NCBI RefSeq assembly: GCF_000768685.1
Contig: NZ_AVPK01000002.1
Location: 186,001-250,000 of the forward strand
Direction: 5' to 3'
Source: Knoellia subterranea KCTC 19937
Lineage (GTDB): Bacteria > Actinomycetota > Actinomycetes > Actinomycetales > Dermatophilaceae
Length of the DNA: 64,000 nucleotides
The notes beneath the pieces were generated by a model. It did no database searches. It worked only from the letters and a program-made list of their open reading frames with translations, and was not told the DNA's origin. Below are positions 1,172-64,000 of the stretch, in pieces. Numbering within the stretch: position 1 is the stretch's first letter; the number at the start of each line of letters is the position of its first letter. The translations under genes were made by a program, and so were the position numbers.

Positions 1172-1340
1172 GTGGGTCCTAACAGGGAGTGGACAGGGAA
1201 CGAACCACCGCACCGTATGCCGCCCGCTCACCTTTCGCGGGCGAAAATGGTAAGCGTTCGGCAAAGTCTTGATGACCACGAGTTCATCGAGGCTCGGTGA
1301 GGACGGCCACGTGTCATGGGCACGGCCTAGGCTGACCGCC

Positions 1341-3482
1341 ATGGCGTCCCCACTGACGATGGAGATCGACGGCCCGGACGGAATGCGGGAGGTGCGGCTC
1401 TCCAGCCCGGATCGGCTCATGTGGCCGGGTGACGGGATCACGAAGGGTGACCTCGCGGCATACATGGTCTCGGTCGGTGAACCCCTGGTGCGCGCGATCG
1501 GGGACCGGCCGGTCACCCTCCAGCGTTTCCCCGAGGGCATCGACGGCGAGGAGTTTTATCAAAAGAATCCACCGAAGGGGATGCCCGACTGGATCCGCAC
1601 GGTGTCGTGCCGCTACCCGTCGGGGAGGCGGCATCCTCAACTCGTCGTCGACGAGGTCGCCGCGGCGGTGTGGGCGGTGCAGATGAACACGGTGACCTTC
1701 CACCCGTGGCCGGTCCGGACGGCGAACAACGACAACCCCGACGAGTTGCGCATCGACCTCGACCCGCAGCCGGGCCGCACGTTCACCGACGCGGTCGAGG
1801 CGGCGGTGGCGCTCCGCGAACTGCTTGCCGAGCTCGGACTGACGGGGTGGGCGAAGACGTCCGGCAACCGCGGCGTCCACGTCTTCGCGCGCATCGAGCC
1901 CACACACGAGTTCCTCGACGTGCGGCACGGCGTCATCGGGATCGCCCGCGAGCTCGAGCGGCGTCTGCCCGATCTCGTGACGACGAGCTGGTGGAAGGAG
2001 GAGCGCGGGGAGCGCGTCTTCGTCGACTTCAACCAGGCCTGCCGCGACCGGACCATCGCCTCGGCCTACAGCCCCCGACCTCTGGCCGGGGCGCCGGTCT
2101 CCATGCCGGTGACGTGGGACGAGCTGCCGACGGTCGCACCGGGTGACTTCACCGTCCTCACCGTCCCCGAGATCGTCGCCGACCGCGGCGACGCATGGGA
2201 GGGCATGGACGACACGGTCGGCGACATCGCGCCCGCAATGACGTTGTGGGACAACGACATCGAGCGTGGTCTGGGCGAGCTGAACTTCCCGCCCGACTAC
2301 CCGAAGATGCCGGGCGAGCCACCGCGAGTGCAGCCGAGCAAGCGGCGTCAGGACAAGTCGGATGCTGAGTACATGGCGCCCAAGGCGGAGCGCGACGCTG
2401 CGCTTCGCGAGGAGTGGGGTATGCCGGTCGTGCCCCCGATCCCGCCGATGCTCGCCAAGCCGTCGAAGAAGCTCGTCGAGGGCGAGGTGAGCTACGAGCC
2501 GAAGTGGGACGGGTTCCGTTCGATCATCTATCGCTCCGGCGACCTCGTGGAGATCGGCAGTCGCAACGAGAAGCCCATGACGCGCTACTTCCCGGACGTC
2601 GTCGAGGCCGTCCTCGCGAACTTCCCCGAGAAGTGCGTCGTCGACGGCGAGATCATCCTCGTGCGACCGGGGGAGGACCGTCTCGACTTCGACCTGCTCC
2701 AGCAGCGCATCCACCCGGCCGCATCGCGGGTCAAGAAGCTCGCTGCCGAGACCCCGGCGAGTTTTGTCGCGTTCGACCTGCTGGCGTTGGGGGAGCGCGA
2801 CCTCATGGGCGACCCGTTCGAGGTGCGCCGGGCCGAGCTGGAGAAGGCGTTCGCCGGCGTCGAGGCACCGATCCACCTCACCCGCGCGACCCGCGATCCC
2901 GCCGAGGCCCAGCAGTGGTTCGAGCAGTTCGAGGGGGCCGGCCTGGACGGTGTCATGGTCAAGCCGCTCGACGGGACCTACGAGCCGGACAAGCGGACCA
3001 TGCACAAGTTCAAGCACGAACGCACCGCCGACTGCGTCGTCGCGGGCTACCGCACGCACAAGAGCGGCGACGATCTCATCGGCTCGCTCCTGCTCGGTCT
3101 CTACGACGACGAGGGGACGTTGGCGAGTGTCGGCGTGATCGGGGCCTTCCCGATGGCCCGGCGCAAGGAGTTGTTCGAGGAGCTCCAGCCGCTCGAGACC
3201 GACTTCGACGACCACCCGTGGGCCTGGGCCAAGCAGGAGGAGGGCACCCGCACCCCGCAGAACGCCGCCGGCTCGCGATGGGCCGCCGGCAAAGACCTGT
3301 CGTTCACGCCGCTCCGTCCCGAGCGGGTCGTCGAGGTGCGCTATGACCACATGGAGGGCGTCCGCTTCCGCCACACGGCGCAGTTCGTGCGGTGGCGCGA
3401 GGACCGCGACCCCGAGTCCTGCACCTACGCCCAGCTCGAGGAGCCCGTGTCCTACGACCTTGCCGACGTCCTCCGTGGCTAG
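1341..3482 (+). CDS. ligD: ATP-dependent DNA ligase LigD (polymerase-ligase)
   Basis: The 713-residue protein has an N-terminal LigD polymerase/primase domain at about residues 15-290. It shows the metal-binding DLD at residues 139-141 and the SGNRGVH nucleotide-binding motif at 174-180. A Lys/Arg-rich linker leads to an ATP-dependent ligase domain with the adenylated lysine in KWDG at residue 388 and a C-terminal OB fold. The family joins double-strand breaks in bacterial non-homologous end joining together with Ku. The phosphoesterase domain of mycobacterial LigD is absent, and no Ku gene lies in the window. I chose ATG 1341 over the upstream in-frame ATG at 1269 because a TAGGCT hexamer lies 13 bases before it, suggesting a leaderless start, and because homology begins there. 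The next gene starts inside its last codons. Confidence 0.93.
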   Translation: MASPLTMEIDGPDGMREVRLSSPDRLMWPGDGITKGDLAAYMVSVGEPLVRAIGDRPVTLQRFPEGIDGEEFYQKNPPKGMPDWIRTVSCRYPSGRRHPQLVVDEVAAAVWAVQMNTVTFHPWPVRTANNDNPDELRIDLDPQPGRTFTDAVEAAVALRELLAELGLTGWAKTSGNRGVHVFARIEPTHEFLDVRHGVIGIARELERRLPDLVTTSWWKEERGERVFVDFNQACRDRTIASAYSPRPLAGAPVSMPVTWDELPTVAPGDFTVLTVPEIVADRGDAWEGMDDTVGDIAPAMTLWDNDIERGLGELNFPPDYPKMPGEPPRVQPSKRRQDKSDAEYMAPKAERDAALREEWGMPVVPPIPPMLAKPSKKLVEGEVSYEPKWDGFRSIIYRSGDLVEIGSRNEKPMTRYFPDVVEAVLANFPEKCVVDGEIILVRPGEDRLDFDLLQQRIHPAASRVKKLAAETPASFVAFDLLALGERDLMGDPFEVRRAELEKAFAGVEAPIHLTRATRDPAEAQQWFEQFEGAGLDGVMVKPLDGTYEPDKRTMHKFKHERTADCVVAGYRTHKSGDDLIGSLLLGLYDDEGTLASVGVIGAFPMARRKELFEELQPLETDFDDHPWAWAKQEEGTRTPQNAAGSRWAAGKDLSFTPLRPERVVEVRYDHMEGVRFRHTAQFVRWREDRDPESCTYAQLEEPVSYDLADVLRG

Positions 3483-4644
3483 TCGATCGGGGCTGCGCCG
3501 GGCGGCGACGGCGGCGGCAGCAGTGGGGGCCACCACGACGCTGGCGAGCGCTGCAGGGTCCCTCGCGGCAGCGGCATACTTCGCCAGAAAGGTGCTCACT
3601 CCGGAACGGAAGCGGCCCGACGACGTCGAACTCCTCGAGGTTCGTGACGATCGGCTGCTGCTGAGCGCGACCGCCGAGACGGTCGTGCCGGGACTCTATG
3701 GCCTCTGGCTCGATGGCGGTCGCGGACACGTGCGCATCGGCGATCTCACGGGGACCGACGTGGCGGACGGAACCGTCGAACGCCTCGTCCTCGGGCTCGA
3801 CGCGGGACGGCTCGCGCCCGGAGGTGCGCGCTTCAACGGCTACCACTACGCCGGCACGCCCGACTCCGACCTGGGATTGCCGACGGAGCATGTCGACGTC
3901 GAGGGCGAGCTCGGTCGCCTCCCGGCGTGGGTCGTGCCGGCGCGGGAGGGGCGCGGGTCGCGCTGGGCTGTCCTCGTGCACGGCCGGGGTGCGCGACGGC
4001 AGGAGGCGCTCCGCGCTCTCCCGGCGCTGCACGCGGCTGGATGGACCTCGCTCGTGCCGACCTATCGCAACGATGAGGACGTCCCGGCCGGCCCCGACGG
4101 GCGCTACAACCTGGGACTGTCCGAATGGCGCGACATCGAATCCGCGGTGGAGTATGCCGTCCGGTCCGGTGCCCGAGAGATCCTCCTCGTGGGGTGGTCC
4201 ATGGGGGGAGCCATCACCCTGCAGTTCCTCGACCGTTCGCCCCTCGCCGACCTCGTGTCACGTGTCGTGCTCGATGGCCCGGTCATCGACTGGGCCGACG
4301 TGCTCGATCACCACGCACGCATGCACCACGTGCCCCGCCCGGTCGGGACCCTGTCGCGCACGATGATGGGCCGCCCCTGGGGCAAACGCTTCGTGGGCGT
4401 TCACGAGTCCGTCGACGTCGCACAGACCGACTGGGTGCGCCGGGCCGACGAGCTGCGTCACTCGATCCTGCTCATCCACTCGGCCGACGACGAGTTCGTC
4501 CCCGTCGGCCCGTCCAGGGCTCTCGCCCAACACCGCCCGGACCTCGTCCACTTCGAGGAGTGGCGGGTGGCTCGGCACTGCAAGGAGTGGAACACCGATC
4601 CCGAGCGGTGGGAGCAGCTCGTCCGCGACTTCGCCGCCAACTGA
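3475..4644 (+). CDS. Membrane-anchored alpha/beta hydrolase
   Basis: The 389-residue product starts at a GTG that overlaps the end of ligD by 8 bases, so it is probably translated from the same transcript. An Ala-rich hydrophobic segment near residues 10-40 looks like a signal anchor. The C-terminal half is an alpha/beta hydrolase: nucleophile elbow GWSMGG with Ser242, an acid in SADDEF (Asp338), and a candidate histidine at residue 368 in RHC. The substrate is unknown; the family includes esterases and peptidases. The pairing with ligD may be only positional. Confidence 0.85.
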   Translation: MASRSGLRRAATAAAAVGATTTLASAAGSLAAAAYFARKVLTPERKRPDDVELLEVRDDRLLLSATAETVVPGLYGLWLDGGRGHVRIGDLTGTDVADGTVERLVLGLDAGRLAPGGARFNGYHYAGTPDSDLGLPTEHVDVEGELGRLPAWVVPAREGRGSRWAVLVHGRGARRQEALRALPALHAAGWTSLVPTYRNDEDVPAGPDGRYNLGLSEWRDIESAVEYAVRSGAREILLVGWSMGGAITLQFLDRSPLADLVSRVVLDGPVIDWADVLDHHARMHHVPRPVGTLSRTMMGRPWGKRFVGVHESVDVAQTDWVRRADELRHSILLIHSADDEFVPVGPSRALAQHRPDLVHFEEWRVARHCKEWNTDPERWEQLVRDFAAN

Positions 4645-6282: not shown

Positions 6283-7271
6283 GCCACGCAGGACCGCGGC
6301 TCTCGCTGCTCGACCTCGCCACGGTCGGGCGCGACCAGCCGATCAGTGAGGCGCTCGAGGCGAGCGTGACGTTGGCGCAGAAGGCGGATGAGCTGGGCAC
6401 CTTCGAGCGCCTCTGGTTCGCCGAGCACCACAACATGCCCTCGATCGCCTCCGCGGCGACCGCGGTCCTGCTCGCGCACGTCGCCGCCCGGACCGAGCGC
6501 ATCCGCGTCGGTTCGGGCGGCGTCATGCTGCCCAACCACTCGCCCCTCGTCATCGCCGAGCAGTTCGGCACCCTGGCCGAGCTGCACCCCGACCGGATCG
6601 ACCTCGGCCTCGGACGGGCCCCGGGGACCGACCAGGTGACGATGCGCGCCCTGCGTGTCGACCCGCGCGCCTCCGATCGGTTCGAGCAGGACGTCCTCGA
6701 GCTGCAGGGCTACCTGTCGGACGAGAGCATCGTCCCGACGATCAACGCCATTCCCGGGCGCGGCACGAAGGTCCCACTGCACATCCTCGGCAGTTCACTC
6801 TTCGGCGCGCACCTCGCGGCGCGCCTCGGCCTGCCCTACGCCTTCGCCAGCCACTTCGCGCCGGATGCGCTCCAGGCCGCAGTTGCGGTGTATCGCAACG
6901 AGTTCCAGCCCTCGGAGCAGTTGTCCGTACCACACGTCATCGCCGCGCTCAACGTCGTCGTCGCCGACGAGCAGGAACAGGCGGAAGCGCTGGGCGCCTC
7001 GGTGCTCAGGTCGCGTGTGCGTTCGCTCGCCTCGCGCGTGCCGGCGTATGCCGGCCGGCTGACTGACGCTGACATCGACCTCCTGCTCCACTCACCCGTG
7101 GGGCAGCAGGCTCAGCACATGCTGACGTACTCGGCCGTCGGCGATGCCGACACGGTCGGCCGCTACCTGACGTGGTTCGCCGAGCACGCGGACGCCGACG
7201 AGCTCATGGTCGTCAACGCGGCGCCGGGTCTCGACAGCAGGCTCCGCGCGCTCGAACTCCTCGCCGGCTGA
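6279..7271 (+). CDS. LLM-class flavin-dependent oxidoreductase (luciferase-like)
   Basis: The 330-residue protein is a single luciferase-like monooxygenase domain of the MsnO8-like subgroup. It shows the N-terminal [10 protein letters not shown], the WFAEHHNM motif and [26 protein letters not shown] split over the barrel, which are typical of the family. Such enzymes use reduced flavin and oxygen, and several act on sulfonates or other organosulfur compounds. Translational coupling to the symporter through ATGA suggests that the two handle the same imported substrate. The exact substrate cannot be read from the sequence. Confidence 0.88.
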
Positions 7272-7404: not shown

Positions 7405-8088
7405 CTACGGAGAGGTGACGCGCCAGAGGCCCAAGAGCGAGCCGTCCTCCTCGAGGAGGTGGACGATCTCGGCGTCGAGACCGGACGTCTCACCCAGCGG
7501 GGAACCGGCGACGACGCGCAGGTGGTCGCCACCGACGAGGCGCGGCGCCAACGTCAGGGCGAACTCGTCGACGACTCCTGCCTCGAGGAGGTCGTGGAAG
7601 AGGTGAGGACCGCCCTCGGCGAGGACGGCCGGCATACCGGATTCTCGCAGGCGACTCACGACGGCCGGGAGGTCGACGACATCGTCTCCGACGACCCAGA
7701 CGTCGTCGTCCTCGGTGCGCCCCGACGCGGCGCAGGTGACGAGGATGGCCCGGCCCTCCCCATCGGCGAGTGACTCGGGGAGGTGGCCGTGGGCGCTCAC
7801 GACGACGATCGGTGTGGAGCCCCGCCGATAGCCCTCTGCGCGGGCGGTTCCCGCGCCGACGAGGACACAGTCGGCGAGCTCCCGCTGGAGGTGGAAGACC
7901 CGACCGTCGGCGTCCGTGTTGATCGACCCGCTTCGCCCGTCTGCGCCCACGGCAGACCCGTCGAGAGTGCTGACGAAGTTCGCACGCACGCCGCCGCCCG
8001 AGGGCCACGCGTAGAGCCGCGCGAGAGCGTCGTCGCCGAGCAGGCCAGGGGAGAAGGAGCGTGAGCGGCTGTCGAGGAGGAGGCGCAC
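7405..8088 (-). CDS. RibD C-terminal-like pyrimidine/dihydrofolate reductase family protein
   Basis: The 227-residue protein shows the RibD_C fold. VRANFVSTLDGSAVG comes near the start, a central GAGTARAEGY follows, and later AEGGPHLFHDLLEAGVVDEF marks the NADPH-dependent reductase. In riboflavin synthesis this domain reduces the ribosyl side chain, but stand-alone copies like this one often have unassigned reductase roles. GTG 8088 was chosen because the conserved RLLLDS start follows at once, whereas the longer frame runs toward the divergent kinase gene. No other riboflavin genes are nearby. Confidence 0.82.
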   Translation of the reverse strand: MRLLLDSRSRSFSPGLLGDDALARLYAWPSGGGVRANFVSTLDGSAVGADGRSGSINTDADGRVFHLQRELADCVLVGAGTARAEGYRRGSTPIVVVSAHGHLPESLADGEGRAILVTCAASGRTEDDDVWVVGDDVVDLPAVVSRLRESGMPAVLAEGGPHLFHDLLEAGVVDEFALTLAPRLVGGDHLRVVAGSPLGETSGLDAEIVHLLEEDGSLLGLWRVTSP

Positions 8089-9119: not shown

Positions 9120-10763
9120 TCAGGCCAAGGTGCGGTCGAGGATCTGCGTGACCTCGGCCTCGCCGACGGCCTCGAGGGTGCCGAAGGCGAGACCACAGGC
9201 CCCTTCGCCAAGGCGGTTCGCGACGAACGTGTCGGCCATGGGGGCGGGGGAGTGCTGGACGAGCAGGGCGGCCTGCAGCGTGACGGCCAGGTGCTCGACG
9301 ATCCGACGGGCCTGCCACGGGGCGTCCTGTGCGCCCGCTGCTGCCACGAGCTCCGACACGGCGTCGATCGCCCGGTCGAGACGTCGGTCGTGCCCGCGGG
9401 CCAGCGAGAGTTCCTTGTCGAGGGCCGCGACGCTCGCAGGTTCACGCGTCATGGCGCGCAACACGTCGAGCGCGCTGACATTTCCCGATCCTTCCCAGAT
9501 CGAGTTCAGCGGGGCCTCGCGGTAGAGGCGGGCCAGTCCGTTCTCCTCGACGTACCCCGGGCCGCCGAGGCATTCGAGCGCCTCTCCGACGACCGTGGGG
9601 GTGCGCTTGCAGACCCAGAACTTCCCGAGGGCAACCCCGAGCCGGGCGAACTCGGTGTCACCCGAGTCGACGGCGTGGGCCAGCCTCAGGCCGAGCAGTT
9701 CCGAGGCCTCGGCCTCGATCGCGAGGTCGGCCAGCACGTTGCGCATGAGCGGTTGATCGACGAGCGGCGAGCCGAATGCCGAACGGTGACGGGCGTGGTG
9801 CACGGCCCGGACGACGGCCTGACGCATCGTCGCGGACGAACCGAGGACGCAGTCGAGCCGGGTCGACGACACCATGTCGAGGATCGTGCGGATACCGCGG
9901 CCGTCCTCGCCGACGCGCACCGCCCACGCCTCCTCGAACTCGACCTCGGACGAGGCGTTGGACCGGTTGCCGAGCTTGTCCTTGAGGCGTTGCAGCCGCA
10001 GGGCGTTGCGGGACCCGTCGTCGAGGACGCGGGGGACGAGGAAGCACGTGACCCCGGCGTCCGTCGTCGCGAGGACGAGGAAGATGTCGCTCATCGGTGC
10101 CGAGAAGAACCACTTGTGGCCCGTGAGTCGATACGTCTCTCCGCCCTCGATCGGGCCTCCGGGCGCGGCGACGGCACGGGTCGCGTTGGCCCGAACGTCC
10201 GACCCGCCCTGCTTCTCGGTCATGCCCATGCCGGCGATGGCCGAGACCTTCTCCCCGAAGGGAGCAAGCTCCGGAGCATACGTGCGCGAGGCGAGCCGGG
10301 GGAGCCAGCGCTCCGCAAGAGCGGGCGTCGACCGCAGAGCCGGCGCCGCGGCATACGTCATCGAAATCGGGCAGAGGTGACCCGCCTCGGCGCGGGACCA
10401 CGTGAGGAACCCAACGGCCCGCCGCAGGTGCGCCCCGGAGCCGGCCGGCTGCGTCCAGGCCTCGGCAGTGAGCCCGTGACCGACCGCGGTGCGCATGAGG
10501 TCGTGGTAGCTCCGGGTGTATGCCACCTCGTCGAGGCGGCGTCCCGTGCGGTCGTGCGTCAGGAGCCGCGGCAGGTCGCGGTGTGCATCGTCGGCCCACC
10601 CCTGCACCTCCGAACTGCCGGCCAGGGCCCCGAGTTCGGTCAGCCCGGCGACGTCGTCGGCCCGGCCCCAGCGCGCCACGGCCTCGACCGCGACCGCATC
10701 GGTGGTGAAGAGGTTGTGCCCAGAGAAGTCCGGCACCTGGTTCACGACGTCGTGGGTCTGCAC
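9120..10763 (-). CDS. aidB: AidB-like acyl-CoA dehydrogenase
   Basis: The 547-residue protein has acyl-CoA dehydrogenase architecture with the AidB-type motif GMGMTEKQGGSDVR and a long N-terminal extension (VVNQVPDFSGHNLF). Family members bind FAD. E. coli AidB belongs to the adaptive response to alkylation and binds DNA, with isovaleryl-CoA dehydrogenase activity reported. GTG 10763 fits the conserved start of the family. The gene stands alone, diverging from the YihY-type gene. No Ada or AlkA gene is visible to support the alkylation role here. Confidence 0.87.
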   Translation of the reverse strand: MQTHDVVNQVPDFSGHNLFTTDAVAVEAVARWGRADDVAGLTELGALAGSSEVQGWADDAHRDLPRLLTHDRTGRRLDEVAYTRSYHDLMRTAVGHGLTAEAWTQPAGSGAHLRRAVGFLTWSRAEAGHLCPISMTYAAAPALRSTPALAERWLPRLASRTYAPELAPFGEKVSAIAGMGMTEKQGGSDVRANATRAVAAPGGPIEGGETYRLTGHKWFFSAPMSDIFLVLATTDAGVTCFLVPRVLDDGSRNALRLQRLKDKLGNRSNASSEVEFEEAWAVRVGEDGRGIRTILDMVSSTRLDCVLGSSATMRQAVVRAVHHARHRSAFGSPLVDQPLMRNVLADLAIEAEASELLGLRLAHAVDSGDTEFARLGVALGKFWVCKRTPTVVGEALECLGGPGYVEENGLARLYREAPLNSIWEGSGNVSALDVLRAMTREPASVAALDKELSLARGHDRRLDRAIDAVSELVAAAGAQDAPWQARRIVEHLAVTLQAALLVQHSPAPMADTFVANRLGEGACGLAFGTLEAVGEAEVTQILDRTLA

Positions 10764-10878: not shown

Positions 10879-12000
10879 GTGACCGACGCGAAGCGACGCC
10901 TCCGCCAGTGGCTGGCGCGCTTCCCTGCCCTCGAGGCCCTCGCCCGGCTGACGGTGGAGACGATCCGCATCTGCCTGCGCTACCGCGTGACCGGGCTGGC
11001 GTCCGAGGCCGGGTTCTTCGCGCTCCTGTCGCTGCCGCCGCTGGTCCTCGGACTCTTCGGTGGCGTCGGTTACGTCGGCCGCTGGCTCGGTTCCGACACC
11101 GTGGAGGAGGTGCGCTCGGCGATCACGGAGTATGCCGCTCGCTTCCTCACCGAGGACGTCATCTCGTCGACGTTGTCACCGACCGTCAACGACGTCTTCC
11201 GGGATGGGCGCTTCGACCTCATCTCCGCAGGCTTCGTGCTGTCGCTGTGGTCGGGTTCGCGCGCCCTCAACGTGCTCGTCGACACGGTGTCGATCATGTA
11301 TGGCCAGTCCGGCGTGCGCGGCATCGTCCAGACGCGGGCGCTGAGCTTCTCCCTCTACGTCGTCGCGCTGCTCGTCGGGGTCGTGACGATCCCCTTGGTG
11401 CTCATTGGCCCGACTCTCCTGGGGGACGTGCTCCCGGACCGCCTGGACTTCCTCACCTATCTCTATTGGCCCGTGGTCTCGCTGCTCGTCATTGCGGGCT
11501 TCACGAGCCTCTATCACGTGTCCACGCCGGTCCGGAGTCCGTGGACGCGCGACATCCCCGGAGCGGTGCTTACCCTGCTCATCTGGGTCATGGCCTCGTT
11601 CGCAGTGCGCGGATCGATCGCAGCCTCGCTGGGTGGCACCTCCATCTATGGTCCGCTGAGCGCCCCGATCGTCCTGCTCATCTGGCTCTACATGCTCGCC
11701 ATCGCGGTGCTCATCGGCGCGGCGCTCAACGCAGCGATCCGCAACCTCTGGCCCTCGGATGACGAGCGCGGTCTGCGGACCCGGATCGCCGACCTCGTGG
11801 TGCCGGGCCGAGCAGGCGTGCGTCGCTCGGAGGAGGCCTCGGCGGAGATGTCGGGTGGTGACGCCGAAGAGGAGAGTTCGGACGAGGACGACGACCTGGA
11901 CCTGCGGGGCCTGCGCGACGCAGCACGTCGCCCACTCACGCCGATCAGCGACGACGAGACCCTCGTGATCCCGCGGATCCGGGTCGGATCGGGCCGGTGA
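10879..12000 (+). CDS. YihY/BrkB-family inner membrane protein
   Basis: The 373-residue protein has about six hydrophobic segments between residues 35 and 285, with YRVTGLASEAGFFALLSLPPL at the first, as in the YihY/virulence factor BrkB family. The C-terminal 90 residues are acidic and hydrophilic (EEESSDEDDD). Family function is unresolved; an RNase BN assignment in old annotations is not supported. GTG 10879 follows a TAGCGT hexamer by 12 bases, suggesting a leaderless transcript. Confidence 0.85.
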   Translation: MTDAKRRLRQWLARFPALEALARLTVETIRICLRYRVTGLASEAGFFALLSLPPLVLGLFGGVGYVGRWLGSDTVEEVRSAITEYAARFLTEDVISSTLSPTVNDVFRDGRFDLISAGFVLSLWSGSRALNVLVDTVSIMYGQSGVRGIVQTRALSFSLYVVALLVGVVTIPLVLIGPTLLGDVLPDRLDFLTYLYWPVVSLLVIAGFTSLYHVSTPVRSPWTRDIPGAVLTLLIWVMASFAVRGSIAASLGGTSIYGPLSAPIVLLIWLYMLAIAVLIGAALNAAIRNLWPSDDERGLRTRIADLVVPGRAGVRRSEEASAEMSGGDAEEESSDEDDDLDLRGLRDAARRPLTPISDDETLVIPRIRVGSGR

Positions 12001-14452: not shown

Positions 14453-14940
14453 TCATTCCGTATGCCGTTCGCCCAGGTGGGAGCGAACGAAGAGTGGGAT
14501 GACGAGCCAGTTGACGACGAAGACGAGCGCCGCGACGACCGTCGAGACGACGGCCGCCCCGCGCCCGACGACGACGTCGAAGATGAGGAACGTGGCCGAC
14601 GCGATGCTCACGGCGAGCGTGACGAGGCCAACCCGGGCAGCGGTGTCGGCGAACCCGACGAGCAGGGCCTTGGCGTGGCGGCGGAACATGAGGCGGTGGG
14701 CGCTGACGGGCGCGACAAGGAGGGTCGTGGCGACGATGGCCGAGGCGAGCGCCACGAGGTAGGCCGTGCGCTGCCCACTGCTGATCTGGGCGAACCGCTG
14801 CTGGAACGGCAGCGTGAGGAGGAAGCCGGCCAGGAGCTGCACGCCGGTCTGCGTGACGCGCAGCTCCTGGAGAAGCTCCTCCCAGTTGCGGTCGAGGCGC
14901 TCGGTCGGAGTCTCGTTCTCACGTGCGGGCTCGTGGTCAC
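14453..14940 (-). CDS. DUF6328-family membrane protein, apparent N-terminal frameshift
   Basis: The main frame encodes ETPTERLDRNWEELL, then LRVTQTGVQLLAGFLLTLPF, which is the signature of DUF6328 membrane proteins, followed by hydrophobic segments to the stop at 14453. This frame is open back to a TGA at 14987-14989 but holds no ATG or GTG before the conserved part; its first GTG is at 14842, inside the domain. A GTG at 14940 in another frame gives MTTSPHV, a plausible family start, and joining it to the main frame needs a one-base shift near 14915-14930. Either the gene is frameshifted, the assembly has an indel, or a non-canonical start is used. It follows the thiolase gene closely on the same strand. 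Function unknown. Confidence 0.65.
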
Positions 14941-21913: not shown

Positions 21914-21926
21914 GCGGACGGCATAC
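21914..21926 (+). repeat. Extended copy of the dispersed GTATGCCG element (intergenic)
   Basis: GCGGACGGCATAC, one of six exact copies of this 13-mer in the window (others at 15618, 35002, 39352, 50716 and, reversed, 52564). Here it lies between a tRNA terminator and the tmsB promoter. Confidence 0.85.
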
Positions 21927-36087: not shown

Positions 36088-36123
36088 GGTATGCCGGGTC
36101 GGGACGTCCGCATCCGGCATACC
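36088..36123 (+). repeat. Inverted pair of GTATGCC elements before thrS
   Basis: GGTATGCCGG (36088-36097) and CCGGCATACC (36114-36123) form a perfect 10-bp inverted repeat with a 16-base loop, 32 bases before the thrS start. A TAGCAT hexamer (36081-36086) just upstream could be a promoter. I found no T-box features. Confidence 0.75.
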
Positions 36124-39352: not shown

Positions 39353-39391
39353 CGGACGGCATACGAACGTCGTTTCTTCGTATGCCGTCCG
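39353..39391 (+). terminator. 15-bp hairpin built from two GTATGCCG elements
   Basis: CGGACGGCATACGAA (39353-39367) and TTCGTATGCCGTCCG (39377-39391) are exact reverse complements around a 9-base loop, 12 bases after the stop of the secreted protein gene. A T-run follows at 39403-39407. Inverted dispersed elements used as terminators are known from uptake sequences in other bacteria. Confidence 0.8.
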
Positions 39392-45036: not shown

Positions 45037-45089
45037 CCATCACCACAGGTCGACTCTTCGCAGCCGGTCCCGGAAGCAGGGAAGGCGCG

Positions 45090-50013: not shown

Positions 50014-50093
50014 GACCGCACCGTATGCCGCGTGCCCGCCTCCCGCTGCGGGCGGGCCCAGCAGTGTCCAGCGAGCGACGTAGCATTCCGGGC

Positions 50094-50715: not shown

Positions 50716-50728
50716 GCGGACGGCATAC
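50716..50728 (+). repeat. Extended copy of the dispersed GTATGCCG element (pdxT-yebC gap)
   Basis: GCGGACGGCATAC, exact 13-mer match to five other sites, 20 bases after the pdxT stop. No hairpin partner is present. Confidence 0.85.
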
Positions 50729-51660: not shown

Positions 51661-52173
51661 GTGCGCGTTCTCGGCATGGATCCCGGTCTCACCCGGTGCG
51701 GCCTCGGGGTCGTCGACGGGCGAGCCGGTCGCGCATCGATGGTCGCCGTCGGCGTCGTCCGCACCCCTTCGGACGCCGAGGCGTCGCAGCGGCTCATCTT
51801 CCTCGAGCGCGAGTTCGAGGGTTGGCTGCGCAAGTTCACGCCCGACGTCGTGGCCGTCGAACGGGTCTTCGCCGACACCAACGTCACCCAGGTCATGAAC
51901 ACCGCCCACGCCACGGCGATCGCGCTCCTCACGGCCGGCAAACGCGGCATACCCGTCGTCTTCCACACGCCGACCGAGGTCAAGGCGTCGGTCACCGGAA
52001 CGGGCCGCGCCGACAAGGCGCAGGTGACCGCGATGGTGACCCGCATCCTCAAGCTCGACTCGCCGCCGAAGCCCGCGGACGCCGCCGATGCCCTCGCCCT
52101 GGCCATCTGCCATCTCTGGCGCGGTGCGGCAACGGCCAGGCTCGACGCCCTCGCGAAGGCAGGTGCCCGATGA
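51661..52173 (+). CDS. ruvC: Holliday junction resolvase RuvC
   Basis: The 170-residue nuclease begins [15 protein letters not shown], with the first catalytic Asp at residue 7; the second acidic residue lies in VAVERVF, and the pair in DAADALA ends the active site. It cleaves Holliday junctions with RuvAB. GTG 51661 follows GGAAGGCGG. A TAGCGT (51615-51620) would give a leader of about 33 bases. Its stop overlaps ruvA (ATGA). Confidence 0.95.
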
Positions 52174-52775
52174 TCGCGTCACTCACTGGTCGCGTCGGAC
52201 ACGTCGGGCTCGACCGCCTCGTCATCGAGGTCGGCGGCGTCGGCATGCTCGTCCACACGACACCGCGCACGGCGGCTGAGCTGCGGACCGGTCAGGAGGC
52301 CAGTGTCGCCACGACTCTCGTCGTGCGGGAGGACTCGCTGACCCTCTTCGGATTCGGGTCGGTAGCCGAGCGAGACATGTTCGAGACGGTGCAGACCGTC
52401 TCGGGCGTGGGGCCGCGACTCGCACTCGCGATGCTGTCGGTGCTCACTCCCGACGAGGTGAGTGCGGCGCTGCGCGGCGGAGACCTCGCGACCCTGACCA
52501 AGATTCCCGGTGTGGGCAAGAAGAGCGCCGAACGCCTCGTTCTCGAGCTCAAGGACAAGGTGGGTATGCCGTCCGCCCCCCAAGGTGCCTCCGCCACCTC
52601 TGCGGCCGCGCCCTCGGGAGACGTCCGTCGCGACCAGGTCGCCGAGGCGCTCGTCGGACTCGGCTGGTCGGCCAAGCAGGCCGGTGACGCCGTCGCAGTG
52701 GTGTCGAAGTCGGCCGATCCGGATGCCTCGGTTGCGGCGCTGCTGCGCATGGCCCTGCGAGAGCTCGGCCGATGA
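52170..52775 (+). CDS. ruvA: Holliday junction branch-migration protein RuvA
   Basis: The 201-residue protein has the OB fold ([18 protein letters not shown]), two helix-hairpin-helix motifs ([13 protein letters not shown] and [16 protein letters not shown]) and the C-terminal RuvB-binding domain after an Ala/Ser linker near residue 140. It binds four-way junctions and recruits RuvB. It overlaps ruvC and ruvB by ATGA on both sides. Confidence 0.96.
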
Positions 52776-54482: not shown

Positions 54483-56306
54483 ATGGCCCAGATGAGTCAC
54501 GCGACGTTCGCGCGCCGTGCCCTGGCCGGCATGGCCGTTCTTGCCATCGCCCTCATGGGTCTGCTGTTCGGGGCGAACCAGTTCGGCGACGGCAGCTATG
54601 CCCCCAAGCTCGGTCTCGACCTCGAGGGCGGCACGGAGATCATCCTCAAGCCGCGCCTCACCGGCGACAGGTCGGTCTCGCCGGAGCAGATCAACCAGGC
54701 TCGCGACATCATCGTCCAGCGCGTTGACGCCGGTGGCGTCGCCGGCGCCGAGGTGACGACGCAGGGCGGCAACAACATCGTCATCAGCATGCCGGGAACG
54801 CCGAGCAAGCAGCAGGAGGACGGGATCCGTCGCTCCTCGCAGCTCCAGTTCCGTCCCGTTCTCGCCATCGCAGCCGGCACGCCCGAGCCGGCGCCGTCTG
54901 CCAGCCCGAGCGGCTCCGCGAGCCCGACGCCCAGCGGCTCGGCCAGCCCCAGCGCCAGCCCGTCGGCCAGCGCCCCGGTTGCCAGCCCGGCGCCGTCCGC
55001 GACGAACAATTCGGCCATACCCGGTGCGCTCTCGACCGAGGCGAGCCCGTCGCCGTCGGCCAGCGCATCGGCAACGCCGTCGACGTCCGCCAGCCCGTCC
55101 CCGAGCCCCAGCCCCAGCGCCAGCACGTCGGGCGCGGGTCAGGCTGCGGGCGACCCCTACAGCCTCGACCAGATCACCGAGGAGATGACGGCGCAGTTCA
55201 CCGCGCTCGACTGCTCCAAGCCGGAGGCTCTCGAGGGACTCGTCGACGACGAGACCAAGCCCATCGTGACCTGCGACCAGGACGGTGCCGCGAAGTACAT
55301 CCTCGGCCCGGTCGTCGTGTCCGGTGACAAGATCTCCGACGCCAGCGCCGGATACCAGGTCACCCCGCAGGGCCAGCAGACGACGACGGTCGAGATCCAG
55401 CTCAGCCTCAACAGCGAGGGCACGAAGCAGTACGCCGACGTGTCGCGCAAGATGGTGGGCCTCCAGCAGCCGCAGAACCAGCTCGCGGCCACGCTCGACT
55501 CGCGCGTCATCGTCGCCCCCTCATTCAACGAGGCGATCCCCAACGGCAAGGCGAGCATCACGGGCGGTTTCGGCATCACCGAGGCGCGTGACCTGGCCCA
55601 GCAGCTCAAGTTCGGTGCCCTGCCGATCTCGTTCGACCTGCAGACCCGCAACCAGATCAGCCCCACCCTCGGTAGCGAGCAGCTGCGCTACGGCTTCTAC
55701 GCCGGCCTCGTCGGTCTGCTCCTCGTGACGATCTACTCGTTGCTCCAGTACCGCGTGCTCGGGTTCGTCACCATCGCGTCGATCGTCGCGGCGGGTCTCC
55801 TGACCTACCTCGCGATCACGATCCTCGGCTGGTCGCACAACTACCGCCTCGACATGGCCGGAGTCACCGGTCTCATCGTGGCCATCGGCTTCACCGCGGA
55901 CTCGTTCATCGTCTACTTCGAACGCATCCGCGACGAGCTGCGTGAGGGACGCTCGCTCGAGAGCGCCGTCGCCACCGGTTGGGACCGGGCCAAGCGCACG
56001 ATCCTCATCGCCGATGGCGTGAACTTCCTCGCGGCCATCGTGCTCTACCTGCTCGCGAGCTCCAGCGTCCGCGGCTTCGCCTTCACGCTCGGCCTGACCA
56101 CGCTGCTCGACATCCTCATCGTCTTCCTCTTCACGCACCCGCTCGTGACGTTGCTCGCGCGCCGGAAGTTCTTCCGTGGTGGGCACCCGATGTCGGGTCT
56201 CGACCCGGAGAAGCTCGGTGCCGTGAAGAAGACCTCGTATGCCGGCCGCGGTCGGTTCACGACGAACCCGCCCCGCGTTGCGGGCGGCGAAGGGAGTGCG
56301 TCGTGA
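54483..56306 (+). CDS. secD: Protein translocase subunit SecD with a Ser/Pro/Ala-rich insert
   Basis: The 607-residue protein has the first membrane helix (about 15-33), LGLDLEGGTEI, the periplasmic P1 domain, and the C-terminal RND-type helices ending with GFTADSFIVYFERIRDEL. Between about residues 135 and 223 P1 is interrupted by a low-complexity stretch of Ser, Pro, Ala and Thr, with runs such as PSPSPSPSAS. SecD works with SecF to pull proteins across the membrane with proton flow. The insert lies outside the cell and is longer than I expect in the family. Confidence 0.95.
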   Translation: MAQMSHATFARRALAGMAVLAIALMGLLFGANQFGDGSYAPKLGLDLEGGTEIILKPRLTGDRSVSPEQINQARDIIVQRVDAGGVAGAEVTTQGGNNIVISMPGTPSKQQEDGIRRSSQLQFRPVLAIAAGTPEPAPSASPSGSASPTPSGSASPSASPSASAPVASPAPSATNNSAIPGALSTEASPSPSASASATPSTSASPSPSPSPSASTSGAGQAAGDPYSLDQITEEMTAQFTALDCSKPEALEGLVDDETKPIVTCDQDGAAKYILGPVVVSGDKISDASAGYQVTPQGQQTTTVEIQLSLNSEGTKQYADVSRKMVGLQQPQNQLAATLDSRVIVAPSFNEAIPNGKASITGGFGITEARDLAQQLKFGALPISFDLQTRNQISPTLGSEQLRYGFYAGLVGLLLVTIYSLLQYRVLGFVTIASIVAAGLLTYLAITILGWSHNYRLDMAGVTGLIVAIGFTADSFIVYFERIRDELREGRSLESAVATGWDRAKRTILIADGVNFLAAIVLYLLASSSVRGFAFTLGLTTLLDILIVFLFTHPLVTLLARRKFFRGGHPMSGLDPEKLGAVKKTSYAGRGRFTTNPPRVAGGEGSAS

Positions 56307-57507: not shown

Positions 57508-58071
57508 GTGGCCGAACCGGACATCAGCGACCTCGTCGCGAACCGTCTGCGGGACGTCGCCGACTTCCCGAAGCAGGGCGTGGTGTTCAAGGACATCACG
57601 CCACTGCTGGGGGACGGCGACGTCTTCGGTGCGGTGATCCGGGAACTTGCGTCACGGCATACGGGATCGTCGTCGGCTCAGCCGATCGACGCGGTCGCCG
57701 GCGTGGAAGCGCGAGGATTCATCATCGGAGCCGCGCTGGCCCACGAGCTCGGCGTGGGCTTCGTGCCCGTCCGCAAGGTCGGCAAACTGCCCGGCGACAC
57801 GGTGCAGCGGACCTACGACCTCGAGTACGGCACGGCGACGATCGAGATCCAGTCGGATGCGGTGAGTCCGGGCCAGCGGGTGCTGCTCGTCGACGACGTG
57901 CTCGCCACCGGTGGGACAGCGATCGCGGCGTGGGACCTGCTTGGCGGGGTGGGTGCCGAGGTCGTCGAGTTCGCCACCATCGTCGAGCTCGCGTTCCTCG
58001 GTGGGCGAAAAGCCATGGGGGAGCGGCCCGTTCGCGCCCTGCATGTCGTGGGTGACGGCGAGGACGCCTAG
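57508..58071 (+). CDS. apt: Adenine phosphoribosyltransferase
   Basis: The 187-residue enzyme has FPKQGVVFKDITPLL, GVEARGFIIGAALA and the PRPP-binding loop RVLLVDDVLATGGT. It salvages adenine to AMP. GTG 57508 comes eight bases after secF; its stop codon TAG is part of the TAGACT hexamer that probably serves relA. The secDF-apt-relA order is conserved in actinobacteria. Confidence 0.95.
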   Translation: MAEPDISDLVANRLRDVADFPKQGVVFKDITPLLGDGDVFGAVIRELASRHTGSSSAQPIDAVAGVEARGFIIGAALAHELGVGFVPVRKVGKLPGDTVQRTYDLEYGTATIEIQSDAVSPGQRVLLVDDVLATGGTAIAAWDLLGGVGAEVVEFATIVELAFLGGRKAMGERPVRALHVVGDGEDA

Positions 58072-58080: not shown

Positions 58081-60369
58081 ATGGCAGAGGAAACCACGCC
58101 GATTCCGGTGCGCAGCGGGGCAACCGCCTCGAGCCGCGCCCGCGCGCGTGCCCGCATCGCCCGCTTCGGCGGCGCGCGGCCCTCTGCCCATCCGGTCCTC
58201 GAGCCGCTCCTGACGACGGTGCGGCTCACGCACCCCAAGGCCGACCTCAGCATCATCGAGCGTGCCTACGACGTCGCCGAACGTGCGCACGAGGGGCAGA
58301 TGCGCAAGAGCGGGGACGCCTACATCACTCACCCGCTGGCCGTCACGACGATCCTGGCCGAGCTGGGCATGACCCCGCCGACGCTGGCAGCGGCCCTGCT
58401 CCACGACACCGTCGAGGACACCGACTACAGCCTCACGCAGCTCGAGAAGGACTTCGGGTCCGAGATCGCCATGCTCGTGGACGGCGTCACCAAGCTCGAC
58501 AAGGTGACCTACGGCCAGGCGGCCGCAGCCGAGACGGTGCGCAAGATGGTCGTGGCCATGGCCCGTGACATTCGCGTCCTGGTCATCAAGCTCGCCGACC
58601 GACTGCACAACGCGCGCACGTGGCGCTACGTGTCCAAGGAGTCGGCGCAGCGCAAGGCACGAGAGACCCTCGAGATCTATGCCCCGCTGGCGCACCGCCT
58701 CGGCATGAACACGATCAAATGGGAGCTGGAGGACCTGTCCTTCCAGACCCTCTATCCCAAGGTCTACGACGAGATCGTGCGGCTCGTCGCCGACCGCGCG
58801 CCGGCCCGCGAGGAGTACCTCGCGACGGTGCGCGCCAGCGTCGAGGGCGACCTGCGCGCCGCCAAACTCAAGGCGACGGTGACCGGCCGACCGAAGCACT
58901 ACTACTCCGTCTACCAAAAGATGATCGTCGGCGGCCGCGACTTCGAGCAGATCTACGACCTCGTGGCCGTGCGGGTCCTCGTCGACACGGTGCGCGACTG
59001 CTATGCGGCGCTGGGTGCGATGCACGCGCGGTGGACGCCGGTGCCGGGCCGCTTCAAGGACTACATCGCGACCCCGAAGTTCAACATGTACCAGTCGCTG
59101 CACACGACGGTCATCGGACCCGAGGGCAAACCGGTCGAGATCCAGATCCGGACCCACACGATGCACCGCCGCGCCGAGTACGGCGTGGCCGCCCACTGGA
59201 AATACAAGGAGAAGTCCGGCAGCGCCGAGGCGGCTCCGGGGCAGACCGGTGCCAACGACATGGCCTGGCTGCGACAGCTCCTCGACTGGCAGAAGGAGAC
59301 CGCCGACCCGGGGGAGTTCCTCGAGTCCCTGCGCTTCGAGATCAACGCCAGCGAGGTCTACGTCTTCACGCCGAAGGGTCAGCTCGTCGGGCTGCCGGCG
59401 AACTCGACGCCCGTCGACTTCGCCTACGCCGTCCACACCGAGGTCGGACACCACACGATCGGCGCCAAGGTCAACGGTCGCCTCGTGCCCCTCGAGTCCC
59501 GCCTGGACAACGGGGACACGGTCGAGGTCCTGACGTCCAAGGCTGATGGCGCGGGGCCCTCACGGGACTGGCTCTCCTTCGTCAAGTCCGCTCGGGCCCG
59601 CAACAAGATCCGCCACTGGTTCACCCTCGAGCGCCGCGAGGAGATGATCGACAACGGCAAGGAGTCGCTGGCCAAGGCCATGCGCAAGCGCAACCTCCCG
59701 GTCGCGCGTTTGTCGTCGGTCGAGTCACTCACGGGTGTCGCCGAGGAGCTCAAGGTCAACGGCATCGAGGGCCTGTATGCCGCGATCGGCGAGGGCCACG
59801 TCAGCGCCCAGCACGTCGTCGCGCGACTCGTGGCTGCCCAGGGCGGTGAGGAGGCCAGCGACGACATCGCCGAGGTCACCATGCCGCGGCCGATCTCGAA
59901 CCGCCGCCGACGTGCCGGTGACCCCGGTGTGGTGGTCAAGGGCACCTCCGACGTGTGGGTCAAGCTCGCCCGCTGCTGCACCCCGGTCCCTGGGGACGAC
60001 ATCCTCGGCTTCGTGACGCGCGGCCAAGGGGTCTCGGTTCACCGTCGTGACTGCACGAACGCGGAGGCGCTGCTCCGTCAGGACGACAAGATCATCGAGG
60101 TCGAGTGGGCGCCGACCGCCAACAGCGTCTTCCTCGTCCAGCTGCAGGTCGAGGCCCTGGACCGCTCGGCCCTGCTGTCGGACGTGACCCGCGTCCTCTC
60201 CGAGAGCGGCGTCAACATCCTCAGTGCGTCGGTGCACACCTCGAGAGACCGTGTGGCCGGGCTGAAGTTCACCTTCGAGATGGGCGACCCCAGCCACCTC
60301 GACCACGTCATCAAGGCCGTGCGCAACGTCGGCGGCGTGTTCGACGCCTACCGCATCACGCAGAACTGA
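58081..60369 (+). CDS. relA: Bifunctional (p)ppGpp synthetase/hydrolase RelA/SpoT
   Basis: The 762-residue Rel protein has an HD hydrolase domain ([20 protein letters not shown]), a synthetase domain ([34 protein letters not shown]), a TGS domain ([22 protein letters not shown]) and a C-terminal ACT domain. All catalytic motifs of both activities appear present. It makes and degrades the stringent-response alarmone. TAGACT (58069-58074) lies 12 bases before ATG, so a leaderless promoter inside the apt stop is likely. Confidence 0.97.
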
Positions 60370-60754: not shown

Positions 60755-60761
60755 GCTCAGG

Positions 60762-63256: not shown

Positions 63257-63313
63257 GCGGCTGAGTCTAGGGAGCGTGTATGCCGTGTGCTCACCCGACT
63301 AGGGTTGGTCACC

Positions 63314-64000
63314 GTGTTGACCATCGCCTTTCCCGCCGCAGCGTTCGGCACCAACTGCTACGTCCTCGCCCAGGGGGAGGGGGAGGAGTGCGTCGTCGTC
63401 GACCCCGGCATCGGGATCGAGGAGACGCTGCGGGAGGTGCTCACCCAGCACCGGCTCAAGCCGTCGGCCGTGCTGCTCACTCACGGGCACATCGACCACG
63501 TCTATTCGGTGACGCCGGTCTGCGGAGGCGACACCGCGGCATACATTCATTCGGATGACCGCTATCGGCTCACCGACCCGCTCGGGTCCGCCAGCCCGGG
63601 GATCGTCGGGATGCTTGAGCAGCAGTTCGGGAGCAAGGCGACGTGGCGCGAACCCGAGACGGTCGTTGAGATCACGGACCGCCAGGCGCTCACGGTCGCG
63701 GGACTGGACCTCGAGGTTCTTCACGCGCCGGGCCACACCGAAGGTTCCGCGATGTTCGGAATCGGGCTGCTCCCCGAGGGCGTGCGTGCGCCCGAGGAAC
63801 TCGACCGGACGATGATCACGGGCGACGTCCTCTTCGCCGGATCGATCGGCCGCACCGACCTGCCCGGTGGCAGCCACGACGCGATGCAGCGCTCGTTGCG
63901 GGACGTCGTCCTCCCGCGCCCCGACTCCACCCTCGTGCTCCCCGGGCACGGCCCCGCGACCACGATGCGGCACGAACGGACCACCAACCCCTACCTGCAA
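63314..64000 (+). CDS. MBL-fold metallo-hydrolase, glyoxalase II-like (5' part)
   Basis: The visible 229 codons encode a metallo-beta-lactamase fold with the metal motif LTHGHIDH, the later HAPGHTEGS, GDVLFAGSIGRTD and LPGHGPATT. This is the arrangement of glyoxalase II-like hydrolases. The gene runs off the right edge. GTG 63314 lies 14 bases after TAGGGT (63300-63305). In related genomes hisS usually follows, which would be outside the window. Confidence 0.9.
   Translation, partial: MLTIAFPAAAFGTNCYVLAQGEGEECVVVDPGIGIEETLREVLTQHRLKPSAVLLTHGHIDHVYSVTPVCGGDTAAYIHSDDRYRLTDPLGSASPGIVGMLEQQFGSKATWREPETVVEITDRQALTVAGLDLEVLHAPGHTEGSAMFGIGLLPEGVRAPEELDRTMITGDVLFAGSIGRTDLPGGSHDAMQRSLRDVVLPRPDSTLVLPGHGPATTMRHERTTNPYLQ

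What the first reader, a model, noticed from the sequence alone, without database searches (positions are those of the whole stretch)
1215..63544. Dispersed octamer GTATGCCG/CGGCATAC, hugely over-represented
By eye I found 43 copies of the octamer, about one per 1.5 kb, 24 in one orientation and 19 in the other. Examples start at 1215, 4152, 7046, 11130, 15377, 17761, 19381, 24038, 28061, 34171, 36089, 40834, 47244, 50023, 56237, 59775 and 63278, and reversed at 1456, 10349, 15623, 21919, 23476, 33783, 35007, 41841, 48410, 50721, 51945, 57655 and 63537. At about 70% GC I would expect only two or three. Copies occur in genes on both strands, where they bring in the rare Tyr codon TAT or Ala codon GCA, and in several gaps. 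The even strand split argues against a KOPS-like polar motif and fits a DNA uptake-like sequence, a recombination or methylation site, or a nucleoid protein site. I know of no description in actinobacteria.
Basis: partly seen in the sequence, partly recalled or inferred. Interest (0 to 1): 0.85.

Follow-up and report, generated by a model that had tools for sequence, protein, structure and literature searches.

The report
Likely DNA-uptake tags in Knoellia
The genome of this soil bacterium is peppered with thousands of copies of one 8-letter word, kept intact by selection and spelled differently in different relatives, which most likely marks DNA as the cell's own for uptake, as is known in Neisseria and Haemophilus but apparently not in actinobacteria.

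Summary
In detail: 44 copies of GTATGCCG in the window (shuffles 0.71), 2,444 in the genome against 54 of the reversed word. It is no codon artefact: 574 copies in genes against 65 after synonymous shuffling, 180 between genes against 2 expected. Where Tyr is kept among nine Knoellia genomes, TAT stays TAT in 96% of cases inside the word and 24% outside. Strands are balanced, and 33 of 34 neighbours under 40 bp apart are inverted, so it is not KOPS- or Chi-like. The three largest word-free gaps look like islands. In the family (Dermatophilaceae, my naming) 40 of 71 genomes carry it; relatives replace or accompany it with GTATGACG, GGATGCCG or GTACGCCG, and these labels cluster on a ComEC tree overall, though GTACGCCG alone does not. 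None of 362 sampled genomes of other families has the excess. Best explanation: a DNA-uptake sequence with dialects, probably read by Tad/Flp-pilus and ComEA/ComEC machinery. Uptake was not tested, no reader was found, and methylation or nucleoid roles are not strictly excluded.

The parts
1215..1222 (+). GTATGCCG, intergenic
   Evidence: gene calls
1456..1463 (-). GTATGCCG in gene 1359-3482
2419..2426 (+). GTATGCCG in gene 1359-3482
3572..3579 (-). GTATGCCG in gene 3523-4644
4152..4159 (+). GTATGCCG in gene 3523-4644
7046..7053 (+). GTATGCCG in gene 6279-7271
7630..7637 (-). GTATGCCG in gene 7405-8088
10349..10356 (-). GTATGCCG in gene 9120-10763
11130..11137 (+). GTATGCCG in gene 10879-12000
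14460..14467 (+). GTATGCCG in gene 14453-14842
15377..15384 (+). GTATGCCG in gene 15003-16166
15623..15630 (-). GTATGCCG in gene 15003-16166
17761..17768 (+). GTATGCCG in gene 17414-19063
19381..19388 (+). GTATGCCG in gene 19239-20267
19474..19481 (-). GTATGCCG in gene 19239-20267
19824..19831 (+). GTATGCCG in gene 19239-20267
21919..21926 (-). GTATGCCG, intergenic
23476..23483 (-). GTATGCCG in gene 23394-24677
24038..24045 (+). GTATGCCG in gene 23394-24677
25862..25869 (-). GTATGCCG in gene 25827-26477
26115..26122 (+). GTATGCCG in gene 25827-26477
28061..28068 (+). GTATGCCG in gene 26474-28417
30199..30206 (+). GTATGCCG in gene 29264-30553
33783..33790 (-). GTATGCCG in gene 33373-35256
34171..34178 (+). 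GTATGCCG in gene 33373-35256
35007..35014 (-). GTATGCCG in gene 33373-35256
36089..36096 (+). GTATGCCG, intergenic, left arm of an inverted pair (hairpin 36088-36123)
   Evidence: folds at -26.8 kcal/mol, z -5.0
36115..36122 (-). GTATGCCG, intergenic, right arm of the same inverted pair
39357..39364 (-). GTATGCCG, intergenic, left arm of an inverted pair (hairpin 39353-39391)
   Evidence: folds at -27.7 kcal/mol, z -6.5
39380..39387 (+). GTATGCCG, intergenic, right arm of the same inverted pair
40834..40841 (+). GTATGCCG in gene 40746-41699; intact in the 4 of 8 Knoellia relatives that could be aligned there (one gap, three without an ortholog)
41841..41848 (-). GTATGCCG in gene 41696-42886; intact in 6 of 6 aligned Knoellia relatives
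47244..47251 (+). GTATGCCG in gene 45920-48202; in none of 5 aligned Knoellia relatives (a recent gain here or losses there)
48410..48417 (-). GTATGCCG in gene 48222-49466; intact in 6 of 6 aligned Knoellia relatives
48570..48577 (+). GTATGCCG in gene 48222-49466; intact in 6 of 6 aligned Knoellia relatives
50023..50030 (+). GTATGCCG, intergenic
50721..50728 (-). GTATGCCG, intergenic
51945..51952 (-). GTATGCCG in gene 51661-52173 (ruvC by my reading); intact in 4 of 8 aligned Knoellia relatives
52564..52571 (+). GTATGCCG in gene 52170-52775 (ruvA by my reading); intact in 8 of 8 aligned Knoellia relatives
56237..56244 (+). GTATGCCG in gene 54483-56306 (secD by my reading); intact in 8 of 8 aligned Knoellia relatives
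57655..57662 (-). GTATGCCG in gene 57508-58071; intact in 7 of 7 aligned Knoellia relatives
59775..59782 (+). GTATGCCG in gene 58081-60369
63278..63285 (+). GTATGCCG, intergenic
63537..63544 (-). GTATGCCG in gene 63299-63949 (simple gene caller)

Best explanation
GTATGCCG is the core of a DNA-uptake-sequence (DUS/USS)-like self tag of Knoellia and its family, with a weak one-sided extension (T at +8, T at +18, A-rich at about -12 to -5). Shown here: abundance, strand symmetry, codon-independent conservation, inverted pairs, largest gaps at island-like regions, dialects whose labels cluster overall on the ComEC tree, and presence of ComEA, ComEC and Tad genes. Inferred: that the word affects uptake, that Tad/Com reads it, and that uptake bias rather than some other selection maintains it.
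For: 2,444 copies against 54 of the reversed control. Genes: 574 against 64.8 after synonymous shuffles; intergenic: 180 against 1.97. Intergenic share 182 of 768 (23.7%) on 8.6% of length; 377 + and 391 - over 25 bins of 50 kb; 33 of 34 neighbour pairs under 40 bp are inverted, where about 19 pairs of any kind are expected. Three pairs were folded and all three are stable hairpins. Conservation over nine Knoellia genomes, where the amino acid is kept: TAT in the word 130 of 136 against 102 of 423 outside; GCA 86 of 92 against 236 of 1,773. Flank against phase-matched control: chi-square 129 at +8 and 165 at +18. The three largest gaps hold IS110 transposases, an RHS-repeat gene, a weak rve-integrase match, a ResIII helicase and a polysaccharide cluster of 62.5% GC. 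Dialects, genome-wide: GTATGACG 1,954 in G034 and 1,557 in G011; GGATGCCGG 2,027 in G033 and 1,068 in G024; GTACGCCG 3,903, 2,618 and 2,216 in G047, G055 and G030. All labels together on the ComEC tree: 14 changes against 23.1 shuffled, 0 of 200 as low. All 40 motif- or dialect-bearing family genomes at least 90% complete have two or more TadA-like hits against 10 of 20 motif-free ones; in Micrococcus luteus both tad clusters are needed for transformation (PMC4322843 section 8). Neisserial parallels: eight dialects of one DUS, two dialects in one genome, inverted pairs in all DUS genomes, DUS-less relatives (PMC3630211 abstract and passages).
Against: No uptake or transformation data. No reader found: ComEC and Tad ATPase occur in nearly all genomes with or without the word (111 and 116 of 117); none of the 11 own-strain Tad-region genes used as queries tracks the word in 19 genomes, which would miss a gene absent from the own strain; the own strain's second Tad cluster is patchy (10 of 117), so the Tad-count association may be phylogenetic. 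PilT is absent at E 1e-60 from 69 of 71 family genomes, unlike Neisseria. On the ComEC tree the GTACGCCG label alone is no better clustered than chance (4 changes, shuffled 4.8, 91 of 500 as low) and main-word and word-free genomes are interleaved. Gap spacing over 1.24 Mb is not clearly more even than random (CV 0.93; random mean 1.00, minimum 0.88). The third largest gap (12.1 kb) barely exceeds the mean random maximum (11.6 kb), and gene content elsewhere was not compared. The downstream T at +18 is weaker in other genera and in the pooled other Knoellia (0.24). Phage TJE1 carries 2 copies, but its host's motif status was not tested.
Confidence: 0.77

Rival explanations
1. A methylation-linked highly iterated word, as proposed for HIP1 in cyanobacteria: an orphan or defence-linked methylase marks GTATGCCG and the mark (repair, replication or defence) favours the word.
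For: HIP1 is also an octamer at very high copy number with two orphan methylases that recognise its inner sequence (PMC4390886, abstract start only). The word has adenines on both strands.
Against: HIP1 is a palindrome; this word is not. Dialects change one base with the rest fixed, and two variants can share a genome (G011, G034). Inverted intergenic pairs and a one-sided flank out to about +36 are not expected of a methylase site. The one restriction-type gene met lies in a word-free gap. No methylase survey was made.
Confidence: 0.1
2. Binding site of a chromosome-organising or nucleoid-associated protein, spread on both strands.
For: Genome-wide, strand-balanced, about one per 1.5 kb; strongly conserved.
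Against: 31 of 71 family genomes have 293 copies or fewer, seven of these showing another spelling and 24 none recognised; a site for an essential chromosome protein would hardly be lost so often. Gaps of 12-15 kb at island-like regions and inverted pairs are not predicted.
Confidence: 0.07
3. Recombination hotspot or segregation word (Chi, KOPS).
For: Short, over-represented, conserved, and found in coding and non-coding DNA.
Against: Such words are recalled to be strand-polar; here 377 + and 391 - over 1.24 Mb, most lopsided 50-kb bin 7:12, and 1,233 to 1,211 genome-wide (contigs of unknown orientation).
Confidence: 0.03
4. Coding or composition artefact (preferred Tyr-Ala or Ala-Tyr codon pairs), or remnants of a dispersed repeat.
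For: 148 of 207 genic copies in 450 kb lie in the two Tyr/Ala reading frames.
Against: Synonymous shuffles give 64.8 against 574; intergenic excess is about 90-fold; TAT and GCA are kept far more often inside the word than outside; outside the 8 bases only weak base preferences remain, so it is no longer repeat (except in G023).
Confidence: 0.01

Closest known systems
DNA uptake sequence (DUS) and its dialects in Neisseriaceae
   Same: Short word at about 1,900-3,600 copies per genome, dialects consistent with phylogeny, two dialects in one genome, intergenic inverted pairs, relatives without any (PMC3630211 abstract and passages); DUS-dialect distribution has been used to find integrative elements (PMC7371117, title and abstract start only).
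   Different: Unrelated sequence, in Actinomycetota; PilT found in only two of 71 family genomes, so no ComP-bearing T4aP system of the neisserial kind is evident (ComP itself not searched); only 8 fixed bases; uptake function untested here.
Uptake signal sequence (USS) of Pasteurellaceae
   Same: 8-9 base core plus a weak one-sided extension with T-rich positions about a helical turn apart (USS extension recalled, not looked up); sub-types exist (PMC3630211 passage).
   Different: Sequence, phylum and pilus type; the Knoellia extension is T at +8 and +18 and mostly C/G between.
HIP1 (GCGATCGC) of cyanobacteria
   Same: Octamer at extreme copy number (PMC4390886, abstract start).
   Different: HIP1 is palindromic and linked to methylases; no dialects or inverted-pair stem-loops are recalled for it.
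Tad/Flp-dependent transformation of Micrococcus luteus
   Same: Same kind of machinery (ComEA, ComEC, Tad) in another actinobacterium (same order by recall); both tad clusters required (PMC4322843 section 8).
   Different: The term 'uptake sequence' does not occur in the main text of the two M. luteus papers searched.

Membership tests
DUS/USS kind of self-uptake word | Short non-palindromic word at hundreds of copies per Mb on both strands | tested here: met
   2,444 copies in 3.57 Mb, 1,233 + and 1,211 -; most lopsided of 25 bins 7:12
DUS/USS kind of self-uptake word | Intergenic inverted pairs forming stem-loops | tested here: met
   33 of 34 neighbour pairs under 40 bp inverted; 3 of 3 folded pairs z -5.0 to -8.1
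DUS/USS kind of self-uptake word | Dialects among related species that follow phylogeny | tested here: met
   ComEC tree, all labels 14 changes against 23.1 shuffled, 0 of 200 as low; but GTACGCCG alone 4 changes, 91 of 500 shuffles as low
DUS/USS kind of self-uptake word | Maintained at synonymous positions | tested here: met
   TAT 130 of 136 against 102 of 423; GCA 86 of 92 against 236 of 1,773; pairs not independent
DUS/USS kind of self-uptake word | Scarce in recently acquired DNA | tested here: inconclusive
   the three largest gaps in 1.24 Mb are at island-like regions, but no genome-wide statistic was made and other islands were not sought
DUS/USS kind of self-uptake word | Competence channel and a type IV-filament machine encoded | tested here: met
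   ComEC in 111 and Tad ATPase in 116 of 117 relatives, own genome included; ComEA-like gene beside ComEC in 21 of 21 loci examined
DUS/USS kind of self-uptake word | DNA with the word is taken up preferentially | not testable with these tools
   needs a transformation or uptake assay
Neisserial DUS-ComP system | T4aP with minor pilin ComP as reader | tested here: not met
   PilT family TIGR01420 at E 1e-60 in 2 of 71 family genomes, not in the own genome or its genus; ComP itself not searched
HIP1-like methylation-linked word | Palindrome | tested here: not met
   GTATGCCG is not its own reverse complement
HIP1-like methylation-linked word | Cognate methylase or methylation | not tested
   no methylome, no methylase survey made
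Chi/KOPS-like polar word | Strand polarity along replichores | tested here: not met
   377 + and 391 - over 1.24 Mb, no polar bin

The most novel reading that the evidence does not exclude
An independently evolved DNA-uptake-sequence system in Gram-positive Actinomycetota, read by a Tad/Flp-pilus machine rather than by ComP on type IVa pili, ancestral in Dermatophilaceae, repeatedly lost and split into at least four dialects that divide the family into groups able to exchange DNA.
Probability: 0.58. Interest if true: 0.92.

Novelty: new variant of a known kind. Interest (0 to 1): 0.86.

Why it matters
DNA-uptake words are best known from two Gram-negative families (Neisseriaceae and Pasteurellaceae).

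Tried and rejected
Looked for a machine component that separates motif-bearing from motif-free genomes. A count of TadA-like hits does separate partly (two or more in 40 of 40 motif- or dialect-bearing against 10 of 20 motif-free genomes; five doubtful genomes and the six family genomes under 90% completeness were left out; by genus 31 of 31 against 6 of 13), but relatedness is not controlled.

Dialect candidates: GTACGCCG was first doubted as a Tyr-Ala codon effect because Kribbella also shows about four-fold excess; the genome-wide table then gave clear outliers, but values of 300-900 in other genomes remain ambiguous. GGATGCCGG in G106 (another family) and its genus runs without a clear break from 82 to 1,656 copies in 59 genomes, and a 20 kb sample of G106 shows no clear leading word, so G106 is not counted as a dialect, although the tree labels it so. 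No word resembling a dialect stood out in samples of G009, G010, G016, G017, G018, G022, G044, G027, G035 and G043; samples of 15-80 kb could miss a weak one, and some other words did exceed expectation there (for example CGAGGACGA 39 against 2.8 in G044), which I took for coding repeats without testing. G023 copies sit mostly in a longer intergenic repeat (9 of 11) and may be something else.

More even spacing than random was seen in the first 450 kb (CV 0.79) but not clearly in 1.24 Mb (CV 0.93), so it is not claimed. The search of plasmids with an IS110 transposase only confirmed that it is a mobile-element family.
Full report
OBSERVATION. GTATGCCG occurs 44 times in the window (25 +, 19 -) against 0.71 in shuffles. 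The window is G000:C12:186001-250000 of a 3.57 Mb genome with 1,233 + and 1,211 - copies; the reversed word has 54. By ComEC the nearest named relative is Knoellia remsis at 77%; relatives recognised by equal contig lengths include Humibacillus xanthopallidus (G046), Intrasporangium oryzae (G028) and Dermacoccus abyssi (G017), so I call the genus Knoellia and family f1 Dermatophilaceae in the GTDB sense (my inference).

NOT AN ARTEFACT. In 1,160 called genes there are 574 copies; 30 within-gene synonymous-codon shuffles give mean 64.8, sd 6.0, maximum 81, and even that is raised by the TAT and GCA codons the word itself brings in. In 106 kb of intergenic DNA there are 180 copies where a first-order Markov model expects 1.97. 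Of the 24 one-base neighbours of the word most are near or below expectation; the highest are GTAGGCCG (102 against 26.5) and CTATGCCG (51 against 13.5). Codon conservation was scored over all ordered ortholog pairs among nine Knoellia genomes in the ruv region, where the amino acid is kept (each pair counted twice, relatives not independent): Tyr codon TAT inside the word is kept in 130 of 136 cases and outside in 102 of 423; Ala codon GCA in 86 of 92 against 236 of 1,773; Arg codon CGG in 59 of 61 against 2,209 of 5,159; His codon CAT in 54 of 65 against 106 of 366; Ile codon ATA shows little (24 of 44 against 4 of 11); whole sites are identical in 378 of 444 comparisons. Individual window sites range from 0 of 5 to 8 of 8 relatives.

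ANATOMY. In 1.24 Mb of the own genome (768 copies) the strands are balanced over 25 bins of 50 kb (most lopsided 7:12); 182 copies (23.7%) are intergenic on 8.6% of the length; 34 neighbour pairs lie under 40 bp apart, 33 of them inverted (about 19 pairs of any kind expected). Window pairs 36089/36115 and 39357/39380 and one pair outside the window fold as hairpins of -26.8, -27.7 and -39.9 kcal/mol. The flank is one-sided: T at +8 (0.51) with A avoided (0.02), A and T avoided at +12, T at +18 (0.41), A-rich at -11 to -5; against codon-phase-matched controls chi-square is 129 at +8 and 165 at +18 (207 genic sites of 450 kb). T at +8 recurs in the pooled other Knoellia (0.62), T at +18 less so (0.24); in other genera the flank is weaker. 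In genes two frames dominate: same-strand Tyr-Ala 89 and opposite-strand Ala-Tyr 59 of 207. Gap CV is 0.93 against a random mean of 1.00 (minimum of 1,000 trials 0.88), so spacing is not clearly regular. The largest gaps are 15.1, 13.2 and 12.1 kb, all in C1 (the random maximum averages 11.6). They hold a polysaccharide/glycosyltransferase cluster of 62.5% GC, two IS110 transposases, an RHS-repeat gene, a gene with an rve match below Pfam's cut-off (IS21-like by my reading), a ResIII helicase and a T2SSE gene (ten proteins of these gaps scanned, no control regions).

DISTRIBUTION. Of 71 family genomes (own included) 40 have 939 or more copies and 31 have 293 or fewer; none of 46 genomes of other families shows it (maximum 167 in G089, whose control is 184). 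In 396 genomes of the order, drawn evenly from a larger group, none of the 362 of other families exceeds 180 by my reading of the table; the further family genomes there include one in between (G359, 625). The low group is partly explained by dialects: GGATGCCGG 2,027 in G033 and 1,068 in G024, also 705 in G051, which has 1,217 of the main word too, and 1,103 in G106 of another family; the other genomes have about 30-350; GTATGACG 1,954 in G034, 1,557 in G011 and 834 in G012, in each beside the main word; GTACGCCG 3,903, 2,618, 2,216, 1,359 and 1,125 in G047, G055, G030, G031 and G061, others up to 900. Samples add GAATGCCG (14 in 22 kb of a Phycicoccus MAG, L078) and GTATGGCG (6 in 22 kb of L083; 10 in 20 kb of G034). 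Positions 1, 3, 5, 7 and 8 of the octamer are the same in all these spellings; 2, 4 and 6 vary. Seven of the 31 low genomes carry such a dialect; for the other 24 none was recognised. On a ComEC tree of 44 rows all labels together need 14 changes (least possible 7) against 23.1 shuffled, 0 of 200 as low; the two GTATGACG-rich genomes form a supported pair, as do the GGATGCCG genomes G024 and G033, within a group of main-word genomes; motif-free G009 is sister to G051. Against the reading: the five GTACGCCG genomes need 4 changes, no fewer than many shuffles (91 of 500), and main-word and motif-free genomes are interleaved (7 and 9 changes). One old origin in the family with dialect shifts and repeated losses fits, but repeated gains are not excluded, and the root and several forks are weak.

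MACHINERY. ComEC occurs in 111 and a Tad ATPase in 116 of 117 relatives; a ComEA-like gene lies beside ComEC in all 21 loci examined; PilT is found in 2 of 71 family genomes. The own Tad cluster (L056) has CpaE-, TadA-, TadB-, TadC-, Flp- and TadE-like genes by my reading. In M. [quoted passage not shown]). Among family genomes at least 90% complete, 40 of 40 motif- or dialect-bearing genomes have two or more TadA-like hits against 10 of 20 motif-free ones (Fisher p 2.5e-6; by genus 31 of 31 against 6 of 13, p 4.5e-5; five doubtful genomes left out; relatedness not controlled). The second cluster is not one orthologous thing, so this is a lead, not proof. No reader gene was identified.

INTERPRETATION. 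The combined pattern matches what was reported for DUS in Neisseriaceae: eight dialects, exceptional copy number, two dialects at nearly equal number in one genome, inverted pairs in all DUS genomes, five relatives without an obvious DUS (PMC3630211, abstract and passages seen). I therefore commit to a DNA-uptake word. It works like a DUS by the genomic criteria tested (island scarcity only suggestive); membership by function is untested, and the neisserial ComP/T4aP arrangement is not met. Methylation-linked (HIP1-like, PMC4390886 abstract start) and nucleoid readings remain possible at low weight; polar words (Chi, KOPS) and codon artefacts are rejected.

LITERATURE. Two searches joining uptake sequences with actinobacteria returned only one review of pathogens, which I did not open (PMC2734928); Intrasporangiaceae with DNA uptake gave none; a broader search listed four papers, all on Neisseriaceae and/or Pasteurellaceae by title and abstract start; the octamer as letters gave 643 papers, the 15 listed being unrelated by title. 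Only an open-access library was searched.

Noticed in passing
L067, L068 (G023): In G023 9 of 11 copies of GTATGCCG are intergenic and lie in a longer conserved repeat of about 30 bases, unlike the other genomes sampled; perhaps a repeat family or terminator that grew from the word.
   Followed up: partly
L056:12311-13636: Two similar small genes between tadC-like and flp-like genes of the own Tad cluster, looking like sortases by eye; no match in the Tad regions of the 18 other genomes compared, two other Knoellia included.
   Followed up: no
L167 (G034): Three spellings at once: GTATGACG 12 and GTATGCCG 9 and GTATGGCG 10 in 20 kb, as if position 6 were free in this clade.
   Followed up: partly
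G106 and its genus (family f19): GGATGCCGG varies from 82 to 1,656 copies among 59 genomes of one genus, strand-balanced, without a clear break; cause unknown.
   Followed up: partly
G000:C1:415881-429063 (L205, L206): Word-free island with an IS110 transposase, a weak rve-integrase match, a ResIII helicase of restriction type and a T2SSE gene.
   Followed up: partly
L205:3253-7473: RHS-repeat gene ending in DUF6973 in a word-free gap near an IS110 transposase; possibly a polymorphic-toxin type gene.
   Followed up: no
41849-47243: Longest gap between copies in the window (5.4 kb); the genes called there were not annotated further.
   Followed up: no
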